This document shows, in pieces, positions 2,208 to 17,475 of a stretch of 39,142 nt of DNA. This DNA comes from Neisseria sp. Its GTDB lineage: Bacteria; Pseudomonadota; Gammaproteobacteria; Burkholderiales; Neisseriaceae. Where the stretch lies: the NCBI GenBank assembly GCA_030538415.1, contig JAUNTY010000027.1, forward strand, positions 1-39,142, given 5' to 3'. The translations under genes were made by a program, and so were the position numbers. The notes under the pieces are model-generated. The model was not told the DNA's origin. It was given only the letters and a program-made list of their open reading frames with translations, and searched no databases. Position 1 is the first letter of the stretch. Every line of letters begins with the position of its first letter.

Positions 2208-3308
2208 TTATCCCGTCACAATCACCGGTTTGTCGGTGCTCATAATAATGCCGCCGCCCAAACAGATTTCGCCGTCGTACAACACCGCCGATTGGCCGGG
2301 GGTAACCGCCCATTGCGGTTCGTCGAAGGTCAGTTCGATGGTGTCGTCATCGAGATATTTCAGGCTGCACGCGGCATCGGCCATGCGGTAGCGGGTTTTG
2401 CAGCTGTAACGGCCTTCGGCGGGGCGCGCGGGCAGGGTGAAGCTCAAATCGTTCATGATTAATGTGTTGGTGAACAGCAGCGGATGGTCGTGGCCTTGCA
2501 CCACAATCAGCTCGTTTTTCGCCAAATCCTTGCCGGCGACAAACCACGGTTCGCCCGCGCCACCGATGCCCAAGCCTTTGCGCTGGCCGAGGGTGTAGAA
2601 AGTGAGGCCGACGTGTTGGCCGACTTTTTTGCCTTCGGGCGTAACCATGTCGCCGCTGTTGATTGGCAGGTATTTTTGCAGAAATTCGCGAAACGGGCGC
2701 TCGCCGATAAAGCAGATGCCGGTGCTGTCTTTTTTGGCGGCGGTGGGCAGTTTGGCTTCGGCGGCGAGGCGGCGCACTTCGGGTTTTTCCAAGTCGCCGA
2801 GCGGGAAAATCGCGCGTTCGAGTTGGAAAGGTTGCAAGCGGTAGAGGAAATAGCTTTGGTCTTTGTTTTGATCCAGACCTTTGAGCAGGTAATGCACGCC
2901 GCCGCGCACTTCTTTGCGGGCGTAGTGGCCGGTGGCAATCACATCCGCGCCTTGTTCGACGGCGTAATCAAGGAAGCATTTGAATTTGATTTCGGCATTG
3001 CAGAGCACGTCGGGATTGGGGGTGCGGCCTGCGCTGTATTCTTTCAGGAAATAGGCGAACACGTTGTCTTTGTATTGCGCGGCGAAGTTCACAATATCGA
3101 TGTCGATGTCGATGATGTCGGCCACCGCCATTGCATCGAGCGAATCTTCCTTGATGCTGCAATATTCGTCGTTGTTGTCGTCTTCCCAGTTTTGCATGAA
3201 CACGCCGCGCACTTGGTGTCCGGCTTGTTTGAGCAGATAGGCGGTGACGGAGGAATCGACGCCGCCGGAAAGGCCGACGATGATGTTTTGGGGGGTATCG
3301 GTATGCAT
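2208..3308 (-). CDS. mnmA: tRNA-specific 2-thiouridylase MnmA
   Basis: It thiolates U34 of tRNA-Lys, -Glu and -Gln: ATP adenylates the base and a relayed persulfide supplies sulfur. The 366-residue protein has the N-type PP-loop SGGVDSS at residues 14-20. The nucleophilic cysteine is C103 in [12 protein letters not shown], and the persulfide cysteine is C199 in [10 protein letters not shown]. The conserved [14 protein letters not shown] and [13 protein letters not shown] motifs are present and the length is normal. The ATG at 3308 gives the family N-terminus directly before the PP-loop. It is a single-gene unit with uptake sequences on both sides; the upstream neighbour, citMHS, is divergent. 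Confidence 0.96.
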
Positions 3309-3641
3309 GGTGCGGAATATGGGGCGGCGGTGCTGTTTTTAAAGCAGAGGCCGTCTGAAACAGTCAAACAAGGCAGGATTTTACCATAGAGTGAAAGTGC
3401 GGCGGTGAATCAGCCCGGTTTCGCCGGGGCGCGGCCGCAGACGGGGTCGGGTTGCGGGTTGTAGCGGATTGAAAGATGAATAAAATCAATTATTAGCCCG
3501 AAAAGATTGTTTTGTTGTGACGGATGTTATGCCGGATGAAAGCTTTGCGGTGATTTTGGCGGGCATAAATGCCTGTAGAATTTTCTTTTTTTTACATAAA
3601 AAGGAGTTGTGGGTGGAATTTGTGTAAACATTTATTAATAT

Positions 3642-3669
3642 TTGGCGCATTTTGTAGCGTTGTGTTATA
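3642..3669 (+). promoter_or_regulatory. Possible promoter of the citrate transporter
   Basis: TTGGCG (3642-3647), a 16-bp spacer and TATAAA (3664-3669) lie about 50 bp before the transporter start. The surrounding mnmA-transporter gap (3309-3718) is AT-rich from about 3480 onward, unlike the coding DNA, which suits a control region. No operator is obvious and no other gene is seen there. Confidence 0.35.
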
Positions 3670-3718
3670 AAGCTCCTCTGGCAATTTTATGATAAAAAAG
3701 TGATATCAAGGAGATTTT

Positions 3719-5101
3719 ATGCTTACTGTCATTGGTTTGGCGATTATTTTGGTTATCGTCGTGCTTCTTCTGGCCGAAAAGGTGTCGCCGGTAATCTGCA
3801 TGGTATTGGTGCCGCTGGTCGGCGCGGTCGTGGCCGGTTTTGATTTTGAAACCATTTCCCAGTTTTACAGCAAGGGCATCGGCTCGGTTACGCAGATTGT
3901 GGTGATGTTTGTGTTTGCCATTCTGTTTTTCGGCGTGATGAACGATGTGGGTTTGTTTGACCCGATGATACGCGGCATGATCAAGCTTACCCGCGGCAAT
4001 GTGGTGGCGGTCACGGTGGGCACGGTGATTGTGTCGGTGATTGCCCAGCTCGACGGCGCGGGCGCTTCCACGTTTTTGTTGGTGGTGCCGCCGCTGTTGC
4101 CGCTCTACAAGCGCTTGCGCATGAATCCTTATCTGCTGTTTCTGCTGCTGGCGGCCAGCGCCGGCCTGATTAACATGCTGCCGTGGGGCGGGCCTTTGGG
4201 GCGTGTGGCCACGGTGTTGAGTATGGATGTGGTGGAATTGTGGAAACCGTTGATTATCGTGCAGGTTATCGGCGTGGTCATGTTGTTGGTGCTGGCGGTG
4301 TTTCTGGGTTTGCGCGAGCAGCGCCGCATCCGCGCGGCTTACCCTGATGTTCAGGCCGGCCCGCTCACTGCGGCTGCCGAGCGTCTGGGCGAGGCGCATG
4401 AAAAACACCGCGGCGACAGCCAGGATGAAGAAGCCGCCATTACCCAGGAATGGGAAGAAACCGGCAGCGCCGAGCGCAAGGCCTTGCTGCGCCCGCATCT
4501 GCGCTGGGTAAACGCGCTGATTTTCCTCTCAGCGCTGGCGGTGTTGGTGTCGGGCATTTTCCCGCCGGGCTATGTGTTTATGATTGCGCTCTGTATCGCG
4601 CTGGTTATCAACTATCCCAAGCCGCATATGCAGATTGAACGCATCACCGCCCACGCAGGCGGCGCGGTGATGATGGCCAGCATCATTCTGGCGGCGGGCA
4701 CGTTTCTCGGTATTCTGAAAGAATCGGGCATGCTCAATGAAATTGCCGTGGCGCTGGTGAGTGTTTTGCCCAATTCGCTGCTGCCGTATCTGCACATCGC
4801 CATCGGCATCATCGGTATTCCGCTGGAGCTGGTGTTGAGCACCGATGCTTATTATTTCGCACTTTTCCCGGTGGTGGAACAAATCACCAGCCAGGCCGGT
4901 GTGCTGCCTGCTTCTGCGGGCTATGCGATGATTATCGGCAGCATCGTCGGCACGTTTGTCACGCCGTTTTCTCCCGCTTTGTGGATGGGGCTCGGCCTCG
5001 CCCGCCTTTCCATGGGCCAGCATATCCGCTATTCGTTTTTCTGGGTGTGGGGCTTCTCGCTCTTGCTGCTGCTGGTTTCTTACATGATTGGCGTATTTTG
5101 A
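3719..5101 (+). CDS. CitMHS-family citrate/divalent-cation:proton symporter
   Basis: A polytopic inner-membrane carrier of 460 residues and about 12 hydrophobic segments, with the CitMHS signatures: an N-terminal helix running into AEKVSPVICMVLVPL, the re-entrant stretch AQLDGAGASTFLLVVPPLLP near residue 105, GLINMLPWGGPLGR near 150, and LSTDAYYFALFPV near 375. Residues 205-255 form a charged cytoplasmic loop. Family members import citrate complexed with Mg2+ or Ca2+, or other tricarboxylates; the exact substrate cannot be read from the sequence. AAGGAG sits 7 bp before the ATG. The gene is monocistronic, with a strong hairpin after it. Confidence 0.88.
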   Translation: MLTVIGLAIILVIVVLLLAEKVSPVICMVLVPLVGAVVAGFDFETISQFYSKGIGSVTQIVVMFVFAILFFGVMNDVGLFDPMIRGMIKLTRGNVVAVTVGTVIVSVIAQLDGAGASTFLLVVPPLLPLYKRLRMNPYLLFLLLAASAGLINMLPWGGPLGRVATVLSMDVVELWKPLIIVQVIGVVMLLVLAVFLGLREQRRIRAAYPDVQAGPLTAAAERLGEAHEKHRGDSQDEEAAITQEWEETGSAERKALLRPHLRWVNALIFLSALAVLVSGIFPPGYVFMIALCIALVINYPKPHMQIERITAHAGGAVMMASIILAAGTFLGILKESGMLNEIAVALVSVLPNSLLPYLHIAIGIIGIPLELVLSTDAYYFALFPVVEQITSQAGVLPASAGYAMIIGSIVGTFVTPFSPALWMGLGLARLSMGQHIRYSFFWVWGFSLLLLLVSYMIGVF

Positions 5102-5113
5102 ATGAGTAATGCC

Positions 5114-5147
5114 AAAAGGCCGTCTGAACGTTCAGACGGCCTTTTTT
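5114..5147 (+). terminator. Uptake-sequence hairpin after the citrate transporter
   Basis: AAAAGGCCGTCTGAACG runs directly into its complement TTCAGACGGCCTTTTTT. This is a long stem with almost no loop and a T-run on the + strand, a classic neisserial intrinsic terminator built from two uptake sequences. Confidence 0.85.
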
Positions 5148-7219: not shown

Positions 7220-10200
7220 TTAAAGCCAGTCGGCCAAATCGGCAGTGTCGATATCCCACTGCCACACGCCGTTGCCGCTGCCGTCCAGCCCGCGCAGGAA
7301 GAGGTAGCGCACGCAAACCGTCGGCAGCGTTTGGCCGCGCAGGGCGAAATAACGGGCGGCGGCGATGGCGTAGATCAGCGCCTGCAGATAGTAATGGTGT
7401 TCGGCCATCGCTTCGTTCATGGCGTCGGTGTTGTAGTCGGCGGGGCTGTTGCCGAGGTGGTTGGATTTATAGTCGATGATGCACACGCGCCCGTCGGCAT
7501 CCTGGCAAATCATGTCGATAAAGCCGTTGAGATAACCGGCGACATCCTGAAAATCCAGCCATTGCGCGGCTTCGATGCAGGCGGCGGGCAGCGTGGATCG
7601 GGTTTGGGCAAACCATTGGCGCAACCGCTCGAGCCCGAAATCGTGCATGTGCAGGGTAAACGCCATTTCCGGCAGGCGGCGCGCGGCGGGTTGGTCGGCG
7701 AGGCTGTGGCCGCCGCTGAGGGAGGTGAGGCGGGTGTGGTCGAGCATGGCGGTGACAGCGGGCAGCCATTGCGCATCAAAGCCGTAACGTGCCAGCGTGG
7801 CGGCGACGGCTTGCTGTTGGCAGGCGGCGGGGCTGTTGAAGTCGAAATTTTCCAGCAACTCGTGCAGACACACGCCTGCGTGCGCACCGCGCGGGAAATG
7901 GTGGATGTCGTCGGTTGCGGATGATGCGGCGCTTTCAGACGGCCTTTCCGGAAAGGTGGCGGCTTCGGCGGGGTCGATGGCGGGTTGCAGCTCTTCGGCG
8001 CCGTCGTTTGGGGTTTTGGTGTGGCGGCTCAGGCCGGTGAAACTGGTGTGGCGGATAAAGGCAAACGGCCTGGCCGGAATGTCGGCAGCCTGATAGTGGC
8101 CGTCTGCGAGGCGTGCGGCGTGGCTGACGGCGCCGGCGGGTGCGGCTTCGACGAACGCAAAGGCAGGTGCGTGTTCGATAAAGCGCAGCCAGTTGCGGCG
8201 CAGCATGGCTTTTTCGCCTTCGGCCTTGGCGGTTTTTTTTTCGGCGGCATAGGCGGCTTCTGTTTCGCTGCGGCTGCTGCGGCTGCCGCCTTCGAGCAGA
8301 TAGGCGAAGGTGTTGGCGGCGGTGTGGTTGCAATGGGCGGCATAGAGGGTGAGCTGCTCTTCGGCGCGGGTGAGCGCCACATAAAGCAGGCGCAGGCGTT
8401 CGGCAGCTTCTTCGTCGGCCAGCTGCCCGAGGTCGGCTTCGTCAAGCTGCGCTTTGGCGAGCAGCTCGCTTCGGCCGCCCGCGCGGTGGAGAATCTGCCA
8501 GTTGTCGGGTTTGTTGTCGGGCGCATCCCACACAAACGGGCAGTAAACCAGCGGATATTGCAGGCCTTTGGCGGCATGCATGGTGACGATTTTCACCAGC
8601 GCTTCATCGCTTTCCAGCCGCAGCTGGTGCGCTTCGTTGCTGTGCCCTTGCGTGGCCGTCTGAATCTGCGCCAGCAGCCATTGGTGCAGCGAGGCGGGCG
8701 TGTGGCTTTGTTCGTCTTCTTCGGCGAGCTTTTCCAGAATCTGGTGGTAATTGGTGAGGCTGCGCTCGTTGGCGGCGGCCAGCAGGCGGGTTTCGATGCC
8801 GTGACGCGCGACAAACTGCTGCATGGCGGCGTAAAAACCGTGTTGACGCCATTGCGCGGCGGCGGCTTCGGCGGAGGCTATCCAGCCCGACAATGCGGCT
8901 TCGTCCTGATTGAGTGCGTAAAGTTCGGCGGCGCTTTGCTGAAACAGGACGCCGCCGAGCACAAAGCGCAACGGCTCGGTGCGCTGCGGTTGCAGCCAGA
9001 AGCCGATGAGGGCGGCCAGCGCGGCGGCTTCCGGCGTGGCAAACACCGATTCGCGCCGGAGCAGCACGCTTTGCACATGGCGTGCTTTCAATGCCTGCGC
9101 GACCAGGCTGCCTTCGTTGTGGGTGCGCACCAGCACGGCGATGTCGCCCGAACGCAGCGGCACGCCGCCGACGTTCAGACGACCTTGCGCTGCTTCGTTG
9201 AGTGCGGCGGCGATTTCGTCGGCGCAATATTCGGCGGCACGGCGGCGCAGGGCTTCCTTGTTCAAAATGGTGTCGTTATCGTCAATCCAGCGCACCCGTA
9301 TCGGCGTTTGTGGCGGCTCGAGGCGGCTGTCGGCGCGGGCGGCATGCACTTGGGGGTAGCCGATTTGCGGCAGCACAAACGGCCGTTGCTTCAGGCAAAA
9401 CAGGCTGCCGACGCCGTCTACCAGCGCGGCGTGGCTGCGGTAATTGGCGGTGAGGGTGTAGCGCTGGTCGGCATCGGCGGCAGCCTGCAGGTAGGCGTAA
9501 ATATCGGCGCCGCGAAAGCTGTAAATCGCCTGCTTGGGGTCGCCGACGAGAAACAGCGGATTGCCGCGCTCGATAAAGATGCGGCGGAAGATTTCGTATT
9601 GCAGCGGGTCGGTGTCTTGAAATTCGTCAATCAGGGCGACGCGCCAGTTGGCGGCGATGATGTCGGCCAGTTTGCCGCGCTGCGGGCTGCCGGTCAGCGC
9701 GTGGTAGACGTCGAGCAGCAGGTCGTCGTAGCTGCGCTCGCGGCGGGATTTTTTCTGCTCGGCCAGCGCCGCTTCGAGATAGGCCAGAAAATCCAGCTGC
9801 AAGGTAATCAACGCGTCGGCTTCGGCGGCGGTCAGCGCGGCGAGATCGCGGCCGAGGTCGGCGAGGCTTTGCAGTTTGGCAAAAGCGGCCGAGTCGGGGC
9901 TTTGGCCTTTTTTCAACTTGGCTGCCAATTCGGCGGCGGCGAATTTGGCCAAACGGTTTTCCGGGTTGTCGGGCAGGCGGCCTGCATCGGCCGCGGCCTG
10001 CAATTCGGCGAATAAAGGCTCGAAAGTGGTTTTGCGGTAGCTGTTGCCGTTGAGCGCGGGGTGGATCTGCCAAAAAGTTTCGGCCAAATCGGACAGTTTG
10101 GGGATCAGACTTTGCCAGTTTTGCTGCACATCCTGTTGCGCCTGCGGCAAATCGGTTTGAGGCCGTCTGAAATGCAGATAGGGGCGGCTGAGAAAAGGCC

Positions 10201-10852
10201 GCATTTCCGCCAGCACGGCCGCCGGAGTGAGCTTGTGTTTGAACACCAGCCGCGCTTTTTGCTCATCGCCCGCTACCTGCGTGCGCCAGAAATCCTGCGC
10301 GGGCGTGAGCAGGCGGCCGTCGTTGTCGTCGGTCAGCTCGGTGTCGAACGGCACTTGGCAGAGAAAGGCATAATCGCGCAACAGCCGCTGACAGAAGCCG
10401 TGGATGGTGAAAATCGCCGCATTGTCGAAATCGCCGATGGCGGCCTTGAGGCGCACAATCAGCCGCGGCAGGCTTTCGGCGGCAAGGGCTTGGGCGAGCA
10501 GGGCGAAGATAAAGGCATCGGGCGCGGGTTTGCCGCTGTGTTGTCGGAACAGGGCTGCCAGCGCATCGGCATCGAAGGGGTGCGCCCAGGTTTCAGACGG
10601 CATGGGCTCGAATTCGAGCAACACGCCGAGCGCATCGTCCAAACGCGCGCGCAAACGGTTTTTCAGCTCCGCCGTCGCTGCTTTGGTAAAGGTGACCACC
10701 AATACCGCTTCGACCGGCAGTTTTTCCAACACAATCAGGCGGGTAAACAGCGCGGCGATGCCGTAGGTTTTGCCGGTGCCGGCGGAGGCTTCGATGAGGT
10801 TGGTGCCGCTGATGGCGATGGTGAGCGGATTGAAGGGCTGGGCTGGGGTCAT
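7220..10852 (-). CDS. recB: RecBCD exonuclease V beta subunit RecB
   Basis: A 3'-5' helicase and nuclease subunit of RecBCD, which resects double-strand breaks and loads RecA. The 1210-residue protein has Walker A ASAGTGKT (22-29), helicase motif Ia [15 protein letters not shown], Walker B DEFQDTDP (409-416), [19 protein letters not shown], and late helicase motifs [11 protein letters not shown] and [14 protein letters not shown]. The C-terminal nuclease domain has IIDYKSN near 1127 and QALIYA near 1157. Length is typical. Neither recC nor recD adjoins it. A TATAAT at 10885-10890 (minus sense) lies 32 bp upstream of the start, but with no convincing -35 box or ribosome site. Several uptake sequences lie inside the coding region. 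Confidence 0.95.
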
Positions 10853-11373
10853 GATGCGGTTTGGCCGGTGGGAACGATGCGGGGATTATAGCGCAAAGGG
10901 TTTGTGGAATGGATGCCGTCTGAAAAACAGGTTTCAGACGGTATCGGCTATGGGGCGTTTGGGATGGATGCCGACCTGCGTCGGCATGACGGGGTTTTGT
11001 TGCTGCGCGGTTGTGTGTGTTGTTTGGCGCTTCAGACGGCCTCAATTACAGGCAGATAGGGAATCCGCCCCTTACAAGCGCTTCAGACGGCATTTGGCAA
11101 ATTCGCGGGCAGAGCCCACGCTACGGCTGTTGTTTGCCATTTTGGAAATATTTGGATGCCGTCTGAAAATCAAACGGCGGGCGGATATGGAATCCGCCCC
11201 TACAAACGTTTCAGACGGCATCGGGCTGGGTTCAGGCGGCGTGGACTAAGCCCACGATACAAACTTCGTGGCCGTTTCGGGAATGGTGGATGCCGTCTGA
11301 AAACAAAACGCTTGCGGTTTCAGACGGCCTTATATATAAATGACCGCTATTCGGGAAAATTAAAGAACAAATC
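10853..11373. other. Gap of clustered ATGCCGTCTGAA uptake sequences
   Basis: I see no gene here. The gap holds many uptake sequences: ATGCCGTCTGAA (either strand) near 10914, 11087, 11155, 11213 and 11289, one variant near 10935, and AGGCCGTCTGAA near 11030 and 11320. A unit reading ...GAATCCGCCCCT(T)ACAA(A/G)CG followed by TTCAGACGGCAT occurs twice, near 11058 and 11190. The GGGCAGAGCCCACGCTAC repeat occurs at about 11104. The pair at 11290-11330 may end transcription coming from the left. Confidence 0.6.
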
Positions 11374-12710: not shown

Positions 12711-13226
12711 CTACGGTTTTTTCTGCAAGTCCACCAGCCGTGTTCCGGCCAGATAGTCATATAAAAACTGGCGGTCACGGTTGAAAAAGGCAAAGCCCCA
12801 CGGCAGTATCCACCAAATCAGCGCCATGCCGAATGCGCTGCGCGGGGGCAGGGCGGGCAGTTGGCGCAGGCCGATGTAGGCCAGTAGCGGCACAAGCACC
12901 ACCAACACGCAGGCCCACATAAAACGCAGGCGCAATTGCGGCAGCGGCGGGCGGGTGTCGCGCGCGTCGGCCAGGCCGATTTTCCACACCCGCATCGGCA
13001 GCGTCTGCCCTTCGCGCATCCAGTTGAGTTTGAAATACAGCCACCATGCGCCAATCAGAATCAGCGTGACGGCAAAGCTGGAAAGCAGCGGGGATATGCT
13101 GTTGGCTACGGTGGCGACAATGCCTGCCAACAGCGCGGCAACGGCGGTGACGGCGCCGATCAGCAGCGCTTCATACAGCAGCGCGGCCAGGCGGCGTTTG
13201 AGGGGGGCGGGCGGAAGGGTTTGCAT
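12711..13226 (-). CDS. RDD-family membrane protein
   Basis: A 171-residue inner-membrane protein with an RDD-type layout: LKRRLAALLYEALLIGAV at the N-terminus (the R and acidic positions of the first helix), further hydrophobic segments near 40-70 and 105-125, and an FNRDRQFLYDYLAGTRLV ending typical of the family. Some RDD proteins have been proposed to be transporters, but the role of most, including this one, is unknown. The ATG at 13226 (MQTLPPAPLKRR) places the first helix normally; an ATG at 13268 adds 14 residues without a better ribosome site. It lies downstream of miaA in the same direction, 124 bp away. Confidence 0.82.
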   Translation of the reverse strand: MQTLPPAPLKRRLAALLYEALLIGAVTAVAALLAGIVATVANSISPLLSSFAVTLILIGAWWLYFKLNWMREGQTLPMRVWKIGLADARDTRPPLPQLRLRFMWACVLVVLVPLLAYIGLRQLPALPPRSAFGMALIWWILPWGFAFFNRDRQFLYDYLAGTRLVDLQKKP

Positions 13227-13349
13227 GGCGGCTCGGAAGGTGGAGGAAGGGGGTATTTTATACGGCATTGGCTACAGATGCATACTATATAACGTGCGAT
13301 ACGGAATGGATTTTGCCATGTTTTCAGACGGCCTGCGGCTATAGGTTGC

Positions 13350-14294
13350 TTATGCCCCGAAATGCCTGCGCGCCAGTTGCAAGGCCGTCTGAACGTAGGC
13401 GCTGTCGGCATAGGGGTCGAGGCTGTGCGCCAGCGGGATTTTGCGCAGCCAGGTGAGCTGGCGTTTGGCGAGCTGGCGGGTGGCGGCGGTGCCTTTTGCC
13501 ACAAAAGTATCGTAATCGGTCGCTCCGGCGAGATAATCCCAGGCCTGGCGGTAGCCGACGCAGCGCATCGACGGCATCTCGGGCGTGAGCGCGGGGTAGT
13601 CGGCCTGCAATTGCGCCACTTCGTCGATAAAGCCCGCTTCCAGCATGCCGTGGAAGCGCTGCGCGATTTGCGCGTGCAGCAGCGTGCGTTGTTCGGGAAT
13701 CAGCGCGATGGTGCACAAATCCAGCGGCGGTGTGTGGCTTTGTTGCGCGGCAAAATGGGCGCTTAAAGGCTTGCCCGTCAATATGAACACCTCCAGCGCG
13801 CGCTCGATGCGCTGGCTGTCTGCGGGCTCGAGCCGCGCGGCGGTGGCCGGGTCGACGGTTTGCAGGCGTGCGTACAAGTGCGCCAAACCGTGTGCCGCTT
13901 TTTCGGCCTGCAAAGCGGCGCGGGTAGCGGCATCGGCTTCAGGCAAGTCGTTGAGCCCGGCGGTGAGGGCGTGGAAATACATCATGGTGCCGCCGACAAT
14001 CAGCGGCAGCCTGCCGCGCGCATGGATTTCACCAACCAGCCGCACGCAGTCGGCCACAAACTCGGCGGCGCTGTAGCTTTGCAGCGGCGAGATGATGTCG
14101 ATCAAGTGATGCGGCACGGCCGCTTGCTCGGCGGCACTCGGTTTGGCGGTGCCGATGTCCATGCCGCGGTAGACCAGCGCGGAATCAAGGCTGATGATTT
14201 CTGCGGGCAACCCGGCGGCGATGGCCAGCGCGAGGCCGGTTTTGCCGCTGGCGGTGGGGCCGAGCAGGGCGAGGGCTTTGGGATGAGGGGGCAT
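13350..14294 (-). CDS. miaA: tRNA dimethylallyltransferase MiaA
   Basis: It transfers a dimethylallyl group to N6 of A37 in tRNAs reading codons that begin with U, the first step towards ms2i6A. The 314 residues include the P-loop GPTASGKT (12-19), the substrate segment [19 protein letters not shown] with the catalytic Asp, [20 protein letters not shown], and the C-terminal [11 protein letters not shown] and [13 protein letters not shown] motifs. Length is normal. In many proteobacteria miaA neighbours hfq or mutL; here it stands alone, facing away from the CsgG-like cluster across a 545-bp gap. Confidence 0.95.
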
Positions 14295-14839
14295 GGGTTT
14301 CAGACGGCCTGAACAAACAAGCGGATATTATATCGTGAAACCGCTATAAAACCGATACGGGACGGCGGGCGGAAGGCAATGCCGCACCGTTATGTGCTCA
14401 TTGATGATGAATTGCCATCATCGACTAGGGCTTCCCCGAAATCCGTTCCGCCATCATTTTATTTCACGTTTTTTCGGTAACATTCCGCCCGATTGTTTTC
14501 TGTAAAGATTATTGGCAAAACAAGGCTCAAGGCCGTCTGAAAGAATATTTCCATAATTAATGAATTTTTCCGAATATTCATTGTTGCTAAAATTTTTTTG
14601 AACTTCTTTTCAATCCTTCACTCCCATCAACAGAAAACGAATGCCGCATTATCTTAATCCGGATTGGTTAATTACCTGATTATTCATAACAAGCGGTAAA
14701 GTTTTCTACGGTTGCGCAACCGGATACGGGTTCTACAGTCTCGCTTCAATCGTGTGTCGTTTGTTTCAAGCAATGCTCTTGATTTTGTTTGAAATAAAAC
14801 GGTCATCATTCTTTTTGAATTGCAAGAAAGGTTTGAATC
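14295..14839. promoter_or_regulatory. AT-rich gap with palindromes before the CsgG-like cluster
   Basis: No gene is visible. The stretch from 14440 is much richer in A+T than its surroundings. It contains a GAATATT/AATATTC inverted pair (14543-14549, 14573-14579), an uptake sequence near 14530, and a perfect 14-bp palindrome CGGTTGCGCAACCG at 14709-14722, which could be an operator. A GATGATG/CATCATC inverted pair lies near 14404-14423. No promoter boxes are convincing. Its size and composition suggest a regulated promoter for the four-gene cluster downstream. Confidence 0.4.
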
Positions 14840-15187
14840 ATGAAAAAGCGTTCTATTTCTTTGTTTTTGGGTTTGATGTTGGCTGCTGCGGGTGCGCAGG
14901 CCGGCGGTTTGGGTGATGCCATCGACGTACTGAAGGCTGCAGGTAACACAAAAGGCTCAATTACTTTCGGCTCCATCACGGGTAAGTCTAAAATTGATGC
15001 AGATGCAGAGGCGCAAGGCAAAGGTTCCGAAGCCATGGCCGGTGGTGTGATTTCCGCCACGCCGAGCGGTCAGGATGGAATCAATGCCAAAGTGACCATC
15101 GGTGTTATCGACAACTCCGCCATCAAAGCCAAAGCCAAAGCCAGCGACGGCGGCAGCGCCTATGCAGGCGGCGTTATCAGCAAATAA
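14840..15187 (+). CDS. Small secreted repeat protein of a CsgG-like cluster
   Basis: The 115-residue product has a clear Sec signal, MKKRSISLFLGLMLAAAGAQA, with likely cleavage before GGLGDA. The mature part contains two imperfect copies of one module. Residues 41-72 (ITFGSITGKSKIDADAEAQG, then AGGVIS) match residues 84-114 (KVTIGVIDNSAIKAKAKASD, then AGGVIS). Each alternates hydrophobic and charged residues, then a Gly/Ser turn, as in beta-solenoid or amyloid repeats. It has no cysteines. AAGAAAGG precedes the ATG. It is the first gene of the + strand cluster, 153 bp before the next. I infer an exported building block; no named family is recognised. Confidence 0.75.
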   Translation: MKKRSISLFLGLMLAAAGAQAGGLGDAIDVLKAAGNTKGSITFGSITGKSKIDADAEAQGKGSEAMAGGVISATPSGQDGINAKVTIGVIDNSAIKAKAKASDGGSAYAGGVISK

Positions 15188-15340
15188 TCTTTCAAACGGC
15201 TTCCGGCATCTGCCGCAGCCGCTCTGTTGAACCCATCCGAAATACGTTGCAGGCCGGTTCAGGTCTGCCTCTGCCCGGCTTGCCGCGTATTTTTGCAAGG
15301 GTTCGATAACATCTTTTTTCCGTTTCCCAGGAGCAATATC

Positions 15341-15931
15341 ATGAGTATGCATCTGCGACGCAAACTGGCTTTGGGCGCTTTAGGCAGCGTGTTGCTGGCC
15401 ACCGCCTACACCGCCACATCCGCACCCAACCCCGTCACCGACAAAGGCTCGGTCAGCCAAAAAGCCAGCGTGACCGACAAACACCAGAAGCTCAACACCG
15501 AACAGGTGAAAATCAACGGCCTGCAGGGCGGTAAAATCACCACCAGCGGCAACAAAATCATCGTGCAAGGCGGCACCATCGTTTCCAGGGCGGGCGACAA
15601 AGAGCCGGCCATCCGCATCGAAAACCCGAAAAACAAGCAGATTCTGATTCAAAACACGCGCGTGATTTCAGACGGCGTGACCCAAAACAACAAAAACGGC
15701 AGCGCGGGCATCGTGGTGATTGAAAACAGTCAGAAACAGGGCAACAGCCATTCGCGCGTGCAAATCGACAATGTGCGCGTCGATGCGCGCAACAGCACCA
15801 TCCGCGCCCAATCGAGCAGCGGCGGCAGCGCCTGCGCAGGTGTGGTGTGCACCGGCTTTGACGATGACGACGACAGCAACATGATTGTCAACATCCGCGG
15901 CAACAATACCTTTGAGGCCGTATCCAAATGA
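15341..15931 (+). CDS. Secreted beta-repeat protein of a CsgG-like cluster
   Basis: 196 residues with a signal peptide (RRKLALGALGSVLLATAYTA, likely cut after TSA). The mature part is built of strand-turn modules near 73-94, 102-129 and 141-169, each with an I-x-N/G-x-x-I/V strand and a Gly/Ser turn leading to I/V-x-I-E-N. The last module, with NSTIRA and GGSACAGVV, matches NSAIKAKAKA and GGSAYAGGV of the preceding small protein. Two cysteines (C165, C170) are close together, followed by five aspartates (FDDDDD). CAGGAGCAAT precedes the ATG at 15341; 15347 is also possible. The stop overlaps the next start (ATGA), implying translational coupling. Probably a substrate or anchor of the channel. 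Confidence 0.75.
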   Translation: MSMHLRRKLALGALGSVLLATAYTATSAPNPVTDKGSVSQKASVTDKHQKLNTEQVKINGLQGGKITTSGNKIIVQGGTIVSRAGDKEPAIRIENPKNKQILIQNTRVISDGVTQNNKNGSAGIVVIENSQKQGNSHSRVQIDNVRVDARNSTIRAQSSSGGSACAGVVCTGFDDDDDSNMIVNIRGNNTFEAVSK

Positions 15932-16878
15932 CGACACGCACTATCCTGAAAACCCTTACCCTCTGCGGCGCTCTGTTTGCGCTGAGCGCCTGCAGCACGG
16001 CCACGCTACAGGCCACGCGTGCGCATTATGCCTCTGAAGGCAGCCGCAGCAAAACACAGAAAGTGGCCGATGCGCGGGCGCAGCAAATCAGCGACGGCAG
16101 CACGTTTTACGGCAAGAAGCTGCAATGTTTGAGCGATTTGCACAAAGACTTTTTCCTCGCGCAGCGCGAAGCTCTGCTCAAATCGGGCGAAGTCAAAGGC
16201 GACGGCTGGTTCCGCATGGCGGTGGCGCCGATTCGCGACAAAACCGGCAAAGTGTTCGACCTCAATTCCACCGTATTGTCGGACATGGTGATGGATTCGC
16301 TGGCGCACTTCAAATATTTCGACGTGGTGGAAACCCCGCTCTATCCCGACGGGCTGACCGACTCGCGCAATAATTTTCTTGACCCGCGCTACGTGATGCC
16401 CAACGGCATCATCCAGAATTTTTCCTCCACCATGACCACGCTGCAACACCTGCCGGTGGGCACGATTTTTCCGTCCAACTACTACATCAGCGGCGCGGTA
16501 ACCCAATACGACGAAACCAACGTGTTGCCGACCAATAAAGACATCGGCATCGACATCTACCAATACCAGTTTTCGCACAACACCCAGGCCATCACCGCCA
16601 CCGTCAACCTGCGCCTGATTGACTCGTGGACCGGCGCGGTGGTGCGCATGCCCGAGAGCAACGATTTGGCCAGCGTCAGCATGACCAACACGTTCTACAC
16701 CATCAAAACCGGCAACAATTTCTTCCGCCTCATCGGCACCAAAGATTATGGCATTGACTATACGGTAGAAGTGGGCGACCCCAAAACCGCCGCCGTGAAA
16801 GAAATGGTCGACAAAGGCGTGTATGAGCTGCTGGAAAAATTCCTGCGCCCGTATCAGGTGCGTGAGCAAGGCTGCTAG
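15928..16878 (+). CDS. CsgG/HfaB-like outer-membrane lipoprotein
   Basis: 316 residues with signal and lipobox LSAC (Cys22). The layout follows CsgG, which forms a nonameric outer-membrane channel for curli subunits. A first strand FRMAVAPIRDKTGKVFDL recalls the CsgG strand with DETGQ; LSDMVMDSLAHFKYFDVVE and a DPR motif follow. Then come NYYISGAVTQYDETN (CsgG: IMVEGSIIGYESN), NTQAITATVNLRLIDSWTGA (CsgG: AVNLRVVNVSTGE) and a C-terminal helix VKEMVDKGVYELLEKF. These similarities are by eye from memory; identity is low. It is longer than CsgG (277) because of insertions and an N-terminal stretch. Its start overlaps the preceding stop by 4 bp, and the next gene begins 8 bp on. The family assignment is likely; the secretion role is inferred. 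Confidence 0.7.
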   Translation: MTTRTILKTLTLCGALFALSACSTATLQATRAHYASEGSRSKTQKVADARAQQISDGSTFYGKKLQCLSDLHKDFFLAQREALLKSGEVKGDGWFRMAVAPIRDKTGKVFDLNSTVLSDMVMDSLAHFKYFDVVETPLYPDGLTDSRNNFLDPRYVMPNGIIQNFSSTMTTLQHLPVGTIFPSNYYISGAVTQYDETNVLPTNKDIGIDIYQYQFSHNTQAITATVNLRLIDSWTGAVVRMPESNDLASVSMTNTFYTIKTGNNFFRLIGTKDYGIDYTVEVGDPKTAAVKEMVDKGVYELLEKFLRPYQVREQGC

Positions 16879-16886
16879 GAGGCAAT

Positions 16887-17378
16887 ATGCAAAACAAAAA
16901 AAGCAAAACACGAGCGCTGCTGCTCTGCGGCCTGATGCTGGCGCAGCCGGTCGGTGCGGAAATTTTCATCATCAACACCCAAACGCTTGACCCCGAGCAA
17001 CTGGGCACAGGCCGCGGCCATTCCCTCAGTGATGTAGAGGCCAACCGCAAGGTGTTGCTCGACTATTACCGCTACAGCGAACAGCAGGCCGCCGTTGTCG
17101 GGCATCAACAATCCACCCGCGACCTTGCCTATAAAATACAACTGCTCAGCCAAAGCGGCGCCGACGAACAGACGCTGAACGAAGTCAACAGCCAGCTCAA
17201 ACAGCTGCAGCAAGCCGTACAGGCCGCCTTGCCCGGACTGTCGAAATTCGAGCTGCCCGAATTCCGGCAACTGCACCGGATCGAACAGGAAAACGCCGCG
17301 CAACTGGAAAACCTGCAGCAGCAGGTCGGAAAAATACCGGCTGCCCCGCCGGAAAGCCAGGCGGACATCAAGCGGTAA
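16887..17378 (+). CDS. Secreted coiled-coil protein of the CsgG-like cluster
   Basis: The 163-residue product has a signal peptide ending QPVGA before EIFIINTQTLDPEQ. The middle and C-terminal parts (about 60-155) are rich in Gln, Leu and Ala with heptad-like spacing (TLNEVNSQLKQLQQAVQAAL, then ENAAQLENLQQQVGK), predicting a helical coiled coil. The tail is Pro-rich. AGGAGGC lies 6 bp before the ATG and only 8 bp separate it from the CsgG-like gene, so it is co-transcribed. It does not resemble CsgE or CsgF. An accessory role in the periplasm or at the surface is likely but unproven. Confidence 0.7.
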   Translation: MQNKKSKTRALLLCGLMLAQPVGAEIFIINTQTLDPEQLGTGRGHSLSDVEANRKVLLDYYRYSEQQAAVVGHQQSTRDLAYKIQLLSQSGADEQTLNEVNSQLKQLQQAVQAALPGLSKFELPEFRQLHRIEQENAAQLENLQQQVGKIPAAPPESQADIKR

Positions 17379-17398
17379 ACCACAGCTCCGGTTGACAC

Positions 17399-17434
17399 AG
17401 GCCGTCTGAAAACAATCATGTTTTCAGACGGCCT
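17399..17434. terminator. Uptake-sequence hairpin closing the CsgG-like cluster
   Basis: AGGCCGTCTGAAAAC and GTTTTCAGACGGCCT pair perfectly across a short AATCAT loop. It lies 20 bp after the last gene of the cluster and 40 bp from the stop of the convergent gene, so it may serve both. Confidence 0.75.
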
Positions 17435-17475
17435 TACATTAATTCCGTGTTGTTTGACGTATTCCGAATTCACGT

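What the first reader, a model, noticed from the sequence alone, without database searches (positions are those of the whole stretch)
14840..17378. Four-gene CsgG-like secretion cluster, not recognised as a described system
Seen: four + strand genes, three of them tightly linked (ATGA overlap, then an 8-bp gap). They encode two signal-peptide proteins built of repeats, a lipoprotein, and a secreted coiled-coil protein. The lipoprotein's strand order and motifs (VAPIRDKTGK, YYISGAVTQYDETN, ITATVNLRLIDSWTGA, C-terminal helix) parallel the CsgG/HfaB family. Known: CsgG exports curli subunits, and HfaB, with HfaA and HfaD, anchors the Caulobacter holdfast. Inferred: a dedicated outer-membrane channel with its own repeat substrates, perhaps a fibre or adhesive layer. 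No CsgA, CsgB, CsgE or CsgF homologue is visible, so the machinery would be a distinct variant.
Basis: partly seen in the sequence, partly recalled or inferred. Interest (0 to 1): 0.88.

Follow-up and report, generated by a model that had tools for sequence, protein, structure and literature searches.

The report
HfaB-like export operon in Neisseria
A few Neisseria species carry a four-gene set that looks like an outer-membrane export channel together with its own repeat-built surface proteins, which may form an unrecognised fibre or adhesive coat.

Summary
In detail: the four + strand genes, the ATGA overlap and the 8-bp gap are there. The lipoprotein belongs to the CsgG superfamily: Pfam PF03783 is above its cut-off, and profile-profile comparison gives 98.3% to HfaB and 97.2% to curli CsgG, far beyond shuffled decoys. 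It forms its own clade, nearest HfaB (93/81), shares an HfaB-type motif, and fails the HfaB equivalog cut-off (19.3 against 300 bits). All four genes occur together in the same 8 of 46 Neisseria genomes; three of them (P4 not searched there) are in 0 of 37 other Neisseriaceae. Gene order is fixed while surroundings differ. P1 is a two-repeat protein in 1-3 copies. P2 has a P1-like stretch and a predicted all-beta fold. A hairpin follows the main P1 copy in 8 of 8 genomes. No curlin repeat or CsgF was found in the 8 genomes. Best reading: a CsgG/HfaB-type exporter with new substrates that build a surface fibre or coat. Pore, export and fibre are inferred. New variant of a known kind.

The parts
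14840..15187 (+). P1: secreted two-repeat protein, proposed major surface subunit
   Evidence: ORF and signal peptide by reading; internal repeat; 15 homologous copies, all in the 8 cluster-bearing genomes among 83 searched
15225..15308 (+). long hairpin between P1 and P2, proposed attenuator or mRNA stabiliser that favours P1
   Evidence: fold of 15190-15339: -61.9 kcal/mol, z -6.46; a hairpin at the matching place in 8 of 8 genomes
15341..15931 (+). P2: secreted protein with a P1-like stretch near residues 121-171 and a conserved CAGVVC; proposed minor, nucleating or anchoring subunit
   Evidence: P1 profile reaches P2 at E about 1e-4 in 4 genomes and 0.009 in a fifth, not in the window's own or two others; hhalign P1 to P2 29%, E 5.7e-4; AlphaFold2 all-beta model, mean pLDDT 72.6
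15928..16878 (+). CsgG/HfaB-superfamily lipoprotein, proposed outer-membrane export channel
   Evidence: PF03783 31.9 bits, cut-off 20.8; hhalign to HfaB 98.3% and curli CsgG 97.2%; own clade 100/100
16887..17378 (+). P4: secreted accessory protein, proposed periplasmic or channel-associated partner
   Evidence: Found in the same 8 of 46 genus genomes, plus one hit at E 0.008 taken as chance
17399..17434 (+). inverted repeat of the Neisseria DNA-uptake sequence (name recalled), likely end of the operon
   Evidence: 16-bp stem; fold of 17379-17450 z -7.51

Best explanation
A self-contained export operon. The lipoprotein forms a CsgG/HfaB-type oligomeric channel in the outer membrane (family shown; pore inferred). 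P1, the repeat subunit present in 1-3 copies, and P2, a beta-rich protein with a P1-like stretch, cross it unfolded and assemble on the surface, P2 acting as nucleator or anchor for P1 as CsgB does for CsgA (inferred). P4 serves as periplasmic or channel-bound accessory (inferred). A hairpin after the main P1 gene keeps P1 in excess over the machinery (hairpin shown by folding; effect inferred). The product is a surface fibre or adhesive coat (inferred).
For: Superfamily membership: PF03783 over its cut-off in the window and in 7 of the 8 homologues when scored in whole genomes. hhalign 98.3%, E 1.5e-14 to 18 HfaB-like proteins (11 of them over the HfaB cut-off) and 97.2%, E 3.4e-11 to 12 curli CsgG. 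Without the first 60 columns still 97.4% and 95.5%; best of 60 column-shuffled decoys per set 1.8% and 1.9%. Motif T.Y...L.C[LM] in 8 of 8 here, 11 of 18 HfaB-like, 0 of 12 curli CsgG, 0 of 19 short Neisseria CsgG. Co-occurrence in the same 8 genomes; fixed order in differing surroundings. P1-P2 kinship. All-beta P2 model. Hairpin after the main P1 in 8 of 8 genomes, z -2.85 to -6.46, against z -1.82 to +0.48 in the 7 other gaps. [quoted passage not shown]
Against: No experiment. The AlphaFold2 model of the lipoprotein failed (mean pLDDT 32.5). A plain profile of the 8 lipoproteins found no CsgG among solved structures at E <= 1 and only the own genome among 370 class genomes, so kinship rests on Pfam and profile-profile comparison; the Pfam match covers residues 177-304 only, one of 8 homologues stays under the cut-off, and a reversed alignment reached 16% against HfaB. 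P2's model has no significant structural match (0 of 71 at E <= 0.001). P1 and P2 match neither HfaA, HfaD nor CsgA. The window's own P2 was not hit by the P1 profile. The split that joins the clade to HfaB has 93/81 support on long branches, about which the program warned. The hairpins differ in sequence and 3 of the 8 genomes share one site.
Confidence: 0.62

Rival explanations
1. The lipoprotein anchors a surface polysaccharide as HfaABD anchors the Caulobacter holdfast; P1 and P2 hold the polysaccharide.
For: Nearest relative is HfaB, with a shared N-terminal motif. A small secreted-protein gene lies before and another gene after, as in hfaA-hfaB-hfaD, and three of the fetched loci (L093, L094, L101) show the same 4-base overlap before hfaB.
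Against: P1, P2 and P4 show no profile match to 8 HfaA or 9 HfaD (at most 0.7%); but repeat proteins are hard cases, since HfaA against CsgA, said in print to be similar, also gave only 1.3%. Holdfast-synthesis genes were not searched.
Confidence: 0.15
2. A CsgG-fold lipoprotein that works in the envelope without exporting anything; P1, P2 and P4 are periplasmic partners.
For: Most PF03783 hits in Neisseriaceae are a separate, shorter clade whose function was not looked into; no model of a barrel could be made.
Against: Linkage to repeat-built secreted proteins with variable copy number; nearest kin are HfaB and curli CsgG, aligned through the C-terminal half.
Confidence: 0.15
3. A protein-delivery or competition system comparable to MafA-MafB, in which a lipoprotein oligomer exports a secreted effector.
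For: MafA is a Neisseria outer-membrane lipoprotein oligomer, compared with CsgG by its authors, that exports MafB (PMC7738311, passages).
Against: No family over its cut-off for P1, P2 or P4 in Pfam or NCBIfam and none at E <= 0.01 in PADLOC. Kinship to MafA was not tested.
Confidence: 0.05
4. Canonical curli that has diverged.
For: CsgG-superfamily lipoprotein beside two secreted proteins that share a repeat.
Against: 0 of 8 genomes have a curlin repeat or CsgF, E. coli control positive; lipoprotein outside the curli CsgG clade.
Confidence: 0.03

Closest known systems
HfaB with HfaA and HfaD (Caulobacter holdfast anchor)
   Same: Lipoprotein of the same superfamily, nearest clade in the tree (93/81), shared T.Y...L.C motif; small secreted partner encoded before it and another protein after it
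   Different: Below the HfaB equivalog cut-off (19.3 against 300 bits); partners without profile match to HfaA and HfaD; P1 in up to three tandem copies
Curli: CsgG, CsgE, CsgF with CsgA and CsgB
   Same: CsgG-superfamily lipoprotein; two secreted proteins that share a motif; P4 of one clade has a mature N-terminus slightly like CsgF's (weak)
   Different: No curlin repeat and no CsgF in the 8 genomes; the window's own P4 does not score CsgF-like
Short CsgG-domain lipoproteins of Neisseriaceae (216-241 aa in the 19 read)
   Same: PF03783 domain
   Different: Separate clade; hhalign 32%, and 3.1% without the N-terminal columns
MafA-MafB (Neisseria)
   Same: A lipoprotein oligomer exports a secreted protein (PMC7738311, passages)
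   Different: No MafB-like partner recognised; sequence relation not tested

Membership tests
CsgG superfamily (PF03783) | Score above the curated cut-off | tested here: met
   31.9 bits against 20.8; 7 of 8 homologues over it in whole genomes
CsgG superfamily (PF03783) | Profile-profile relation over most of the protein | tested here: met
   98.3% to HfaB over 241 columns, 97.2% to curli CsgG over 182; decoys at most 1.9%, one reversed control 16%
CsgG superfamily (PF03783) | Oligomeric beta-barrel pore | not testable with these tools
   AlphaFold2 model failed, pLDDT 32.5
HfaB equivalog (NF037935) | Score above the curated cut-off | tested here: not met
   19.3 against 300 bits
Holdfast anchor HfaABD | Partners HfaA and HfaD | tested here: not met
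   hhalign of P1, P2, P4 to 8 HfaA and 9 HfaD at most 0.7%; limited power on repeat proteins
Curli system | CsgA/CsgB with curlin repeats | tested here: not met
   PF07012 in 0 of 8 genomes, E. coli control positive
Curli system | CsgF | tested here: not met
   PF10614 in 0 of 8 genomes, E. coli control positive
Curli system | CsgE | not tested
   No genome-wide search made
MafA | Sequence relation to MafA | not tested
   No MafA sequence was fetched

The most novel reading that the evidence does not exclude
A distinct branch of CsgG/HfaB-type export in which a new two-repeat (AGGV-type) subunit family, nucleated by a beta-solenoid protein that shares the repeat, builds a surface fibre in a subset of Neisseria and is passed around as one unit; the fibre would be a new class of functional amyloid or beta-solenoid polymer.
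Probability: 0.35. Interest if true: 0.78.

Novelty: new variant of a known kind. Interest (0 to 1): 0.6.

Why it matters
No description of such a system in Neisseria appeared in the listings of my library searches (only the top 2-30 papers of each were listed, and subscription journals are largely not held). If P1 and P2 are exported, they are a further set of substrates for the CsgG/HfaB channel family beside curli and holdfast anchors, and a test of what the channel requires of its cargo. It would also add a candidate adhesin or biofilm fibre to Neisseria. Four genes are few enough to rebuild in laboratory E. coli.

Tried and rejected
Rejected: curli membership; HfaB equivalog and HfaABD membership; close kinship of the lipoprotein with the short Neisseria CsgG clade.

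P4 as a CsgF relative: hhalign 3.7%, E 0.011, N-terminus only. In a score of mature N-termini against 12 CsgF, P4 of L014, L015 and L013 (one clade) scored 4.0, -1.3 and -2.8, where the best unrelated sequence scored -2.6 among 149 secreted-like ORFs (these also held 8 CsgF and one P4); the other 5 of 8, the window's included, scored -7.9 to -16.3. A lead only.

Led nowhere: AlphaFold2 of the lipoprotein; Foldseek of P2, 71 matches, best E 0.2, many of them beta-helices, FapC third at E 0.35, none significant; tblastn of the lipoprotein and of P1 against plasmids and of P2 against phages; PDB sequence searches with lipoprotein, P1 and P4, best E 0.12 to an unrelated enzyme; PHROGs, one unnamed family for the lipoprotein at E 1.1e-7; promoter scan, 3 sites against 2.0 expected; Rfam, no hit. 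Scattered single-member family hits (best E 0.00098 for one P4) were taken as chance. P1 profile in 370 class genomes: 3 hits outside the own genome at E 0.001-0.007, not followed up.

Rows dropped or limits: the HfaB-like set is 18 of the 52 genomes with a hit at E <= 1e-4, the best-scoring ones; the curli set is 12 of the rest (all 12 have a CsgF frame); the short set is 19 of 20 loci (L054 left out). Alignment A4 holds 13 of 15 P1 copies, because one search listed ATG starts only. Two HfaD entries kept overlong N-termini. One search read some short CsgG loci on the wrong strand; mended. My note says five or more sites; on rechecking I count at least four neighbourhoods.

Full report
What is there. 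The four genes lie on the + strand as described: P1 14840-15187, P2 15341-15931, the lipoprotein 15928-16878 and P4 16887-17378. P2 and the lipoprotein overlap by ATGA, the lipoprotein and P4 are 8 bp apart, and P1 stands 153 bp before P2. A DNA-uptake-type inverted repeat closes the unit at 17399-17434 (the name of the repeat is recalled). Upstream lies miaA on the other strand and downstream an amino-acid-binding protein gene, also on the other strand (Pfam IPPT and SBP_bac_3; gene names recalled).

The lipoprotein. PF03783 (CsgG) matches residues 177-304 with 31.9 bits, above its cut-off of 20.8; of the 8 homologues scored in whole genomes 7 pass. The HfaB equivalog model matches weakly, 19.3 bits against a cut-off of 300. 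Eight homologues were aligned. For comparison I took 18 HfaB-like proteins (11 over the HfaB cut-off), 12 curli-type CsgG and 19 short Neisseria CsgG proteins from genomes. hhalign gave 98.3%, E 1.5e-14 to the HfaB set, 97.2%, E 3.4e-11 to the curli set and 32% to the short set. With the first 60 columns removed the values were 97.4%, 95.5% and 3.1%; the best of 60 column-shuffled decoys per set reached 1.8% and 1.9%, and a reversed alignment 16% against HfaB and 0.2% against curli CsgG. The motif T.Y...L.C[LM] stands in 8 of 8 here, 11 of 18 HfaB-like, 0 of 12 curli CsgG and 0 of 19 short CsgG. In an unrooted tree of 57 proteins the eight form one clade (100/100) on a long stem; the split that puts them with HfaB has 93/81 support, and the program warned about long branches. 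A plain profile of the eight found no CsgG among solved structures and nothing beyond the own genome in 370 class genomes. So the protein is a divergent CsgG-superfamily member, nearest HfaB, and not HfaB itself. The AlphaFold2 model failed (mean pLDDT 32.5).

Distribution. The lipoprotein was found in 8 of 83 Neisseriaceae genomes, all in one genus (the genus has 46 genomes here). P1 and P2 profiles hit the same 8 of 83. The P4 profile, searched in the 46 genus genomes only, hit the same 8 plus one at E 0.008 inside a 933-aa frame, taken as chance. In wider samples the P2 profile hit 1 of 399 order genomes, the own one; the P1 profile hit 4 of 370 class genomes, the three others at E 0.001-0.007 and not followed up. 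Plasmids held no match to the lipoprotein or P1, and phages none to P2.

Kept together in differing surroundings. In 7 of 7 other genomes the order P1(1-3)-P2-lipoprotein-P4 is kept. Flanking genes differ. The window and L010 share miaA and its neighbour, but the cluster points the other way relative to them. L012 and L016 share one gene (83%), again with the cluster in opposite orientation and at a different distance. L013-L015 share one site. L011 shares none. This makes at least four neighbourhoods. The roughly 300 bases before P1 are visibly alike in the window and L010. That the unit moves is inferred from this.

Cargo candidates. P1 has two repeats (for example the window copy aligns ITFGSITGKSKIDADAEA...AGGVIS with VTIGVIDNSAIKAKAKA...AGGVIS); in 11 of 13 tested copies no shuffle of 500 did as well. 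It exists in 15 copies over the 8 genomes. The P1 profile also reaches P2 at E about 1e-4 in four genomes and 0.009 in a fifth; in the other three, the window's included, no P2 hit passed 0.01. hhalign of the two alignments places the match at residues 121-171 of the window's P2 (29%, E 5.7e-4). P2's model is all-beta with short, fairly regularly spaced strands: mean pLDDT 72.6, 12 of 14 ten-residue blocks from residue 61 on at 83-94, the other two at 59 and 63, and residues 1-51 under 50. Foldseek found nothing significant. 'Solenoid-like' is my inference from strand spacing. No family over its cut-off names P1, P2 or P4 of the window, and the scans of their relatives gave only scattered weak hits. 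Profile tests against HfaA, HfaD and CsgA were negative, but HfaA against CsgA, a pair said in print to be similar (PMC6707917, passages), was negative too (1.3%), so these tests have little power on repeat proteins. The 8 genomes have no curlin repeat and no CsgF (0 of 8 each, E. coli control positive).

Hairpin. Between P1 and P2 of the window a long hairpin folds at -61.9 kcal/mol, z -6.46. In all 8 genomes the gap right after the P1 copy that is closest to the window's P1 (by E-value) folds well: z -6.46, -3.71, -4.56, -5.27, -4.68, -3.64, -3.92, -2.85. The 7 other gaps, all in the four multi-copy loci, do not: z -1.82 to +0.48. Six gaps over 150 bases were trimmed to 150. The sequences differ between groups, which suggests that position matters; three of the eight genomes share one site, so the cases are not all independent. 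The plain reading is higher output of one subunit; that effect is inferred.

Selection. Between the window and L010, dN/dS is about 0.24 (P1), 0.13 (P2), 0.04 (lipoprotein) and 0.14 (P4, dS high): all four are kept as proteins, and the channel candidate is most constrained.

Mechanism. In Caulobacter, HfaB is needed for HfaA and HfaD to reach the outer membrane and surface (PMC6707917, passages). Curli CsgG is thought to pass unfolded subunits, with CsgF lining the upper channel (PMC7304575, passages). By analogy the lipoprotein would export P1 and P2. P2, sharing P1's repeat, would start or anchor the polymer as CsgB does. P4 could be a channel accessory: in one clade its mature N-terminus slightly resembles CsgF's, but not in the window's own protein. 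PMC3521004 (passages) notes that about half of the alphaproteobacterial genera with curli lack csgE and csgF, so a reduced set is not unheard of.

Verdict. It is a new variant of a known kind: a known channel superfamily with unrecognised partner families.

Noticed in passing
L038-L057: A different, shorter CsgG-domain lipoprotein clade (216-241 aa in the 19 read) makes up most PF03783 hits in Neisseriaceae; genomes G011 and G046 carry both kinds, in G011 about 7 kb apart.
   Followed up: partly
L099 (G085), 2889-5134 on the oriented strand: An HfaB-like gene of 297.5 bits, just under the 300-bit cut-off, in a genome of the window's own order, with two small secreted-looking proteins before it: a holdfast-anchor-like locus.
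   Followed up: no
L103, L104, L105: HfaB-like genes followed by repeat proteins of the ATAVGN type (251-584 aa), with no HfaA-like frame evident beside them: perhaps other cargo sets for this channel family.
   Followed up: no
window 12711-17434 and L010 5503-10213; also L012 and L016: The cluster lies near the same neighbour gene but in opposite orientation to it in two pairs of genomes, as if inverted or inserted independently.
   Followed up: partly
L015, oriented 10090-11061: A 323-aa frame near the cluster without a counterpart in the fetched stretches of L013 or L014, which otherwise share the site.
   Followed up: no
window:15928-16878, residues 67 and 316; window:15341-15931, residues 165 and 170: Two cysteines besides the lipobox cysteine are invariant in 8 of 8 lipoproteins, and P2 has an invariant CAGVVC; role unknown.
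   Followed up: no
window:15928-16878: The lipoprotein matches an unnamed family of phage proteins, phrog_20175, at E 1.1e-7, so CsgG-like proteins seem to occur in phages.
   Followed up: no
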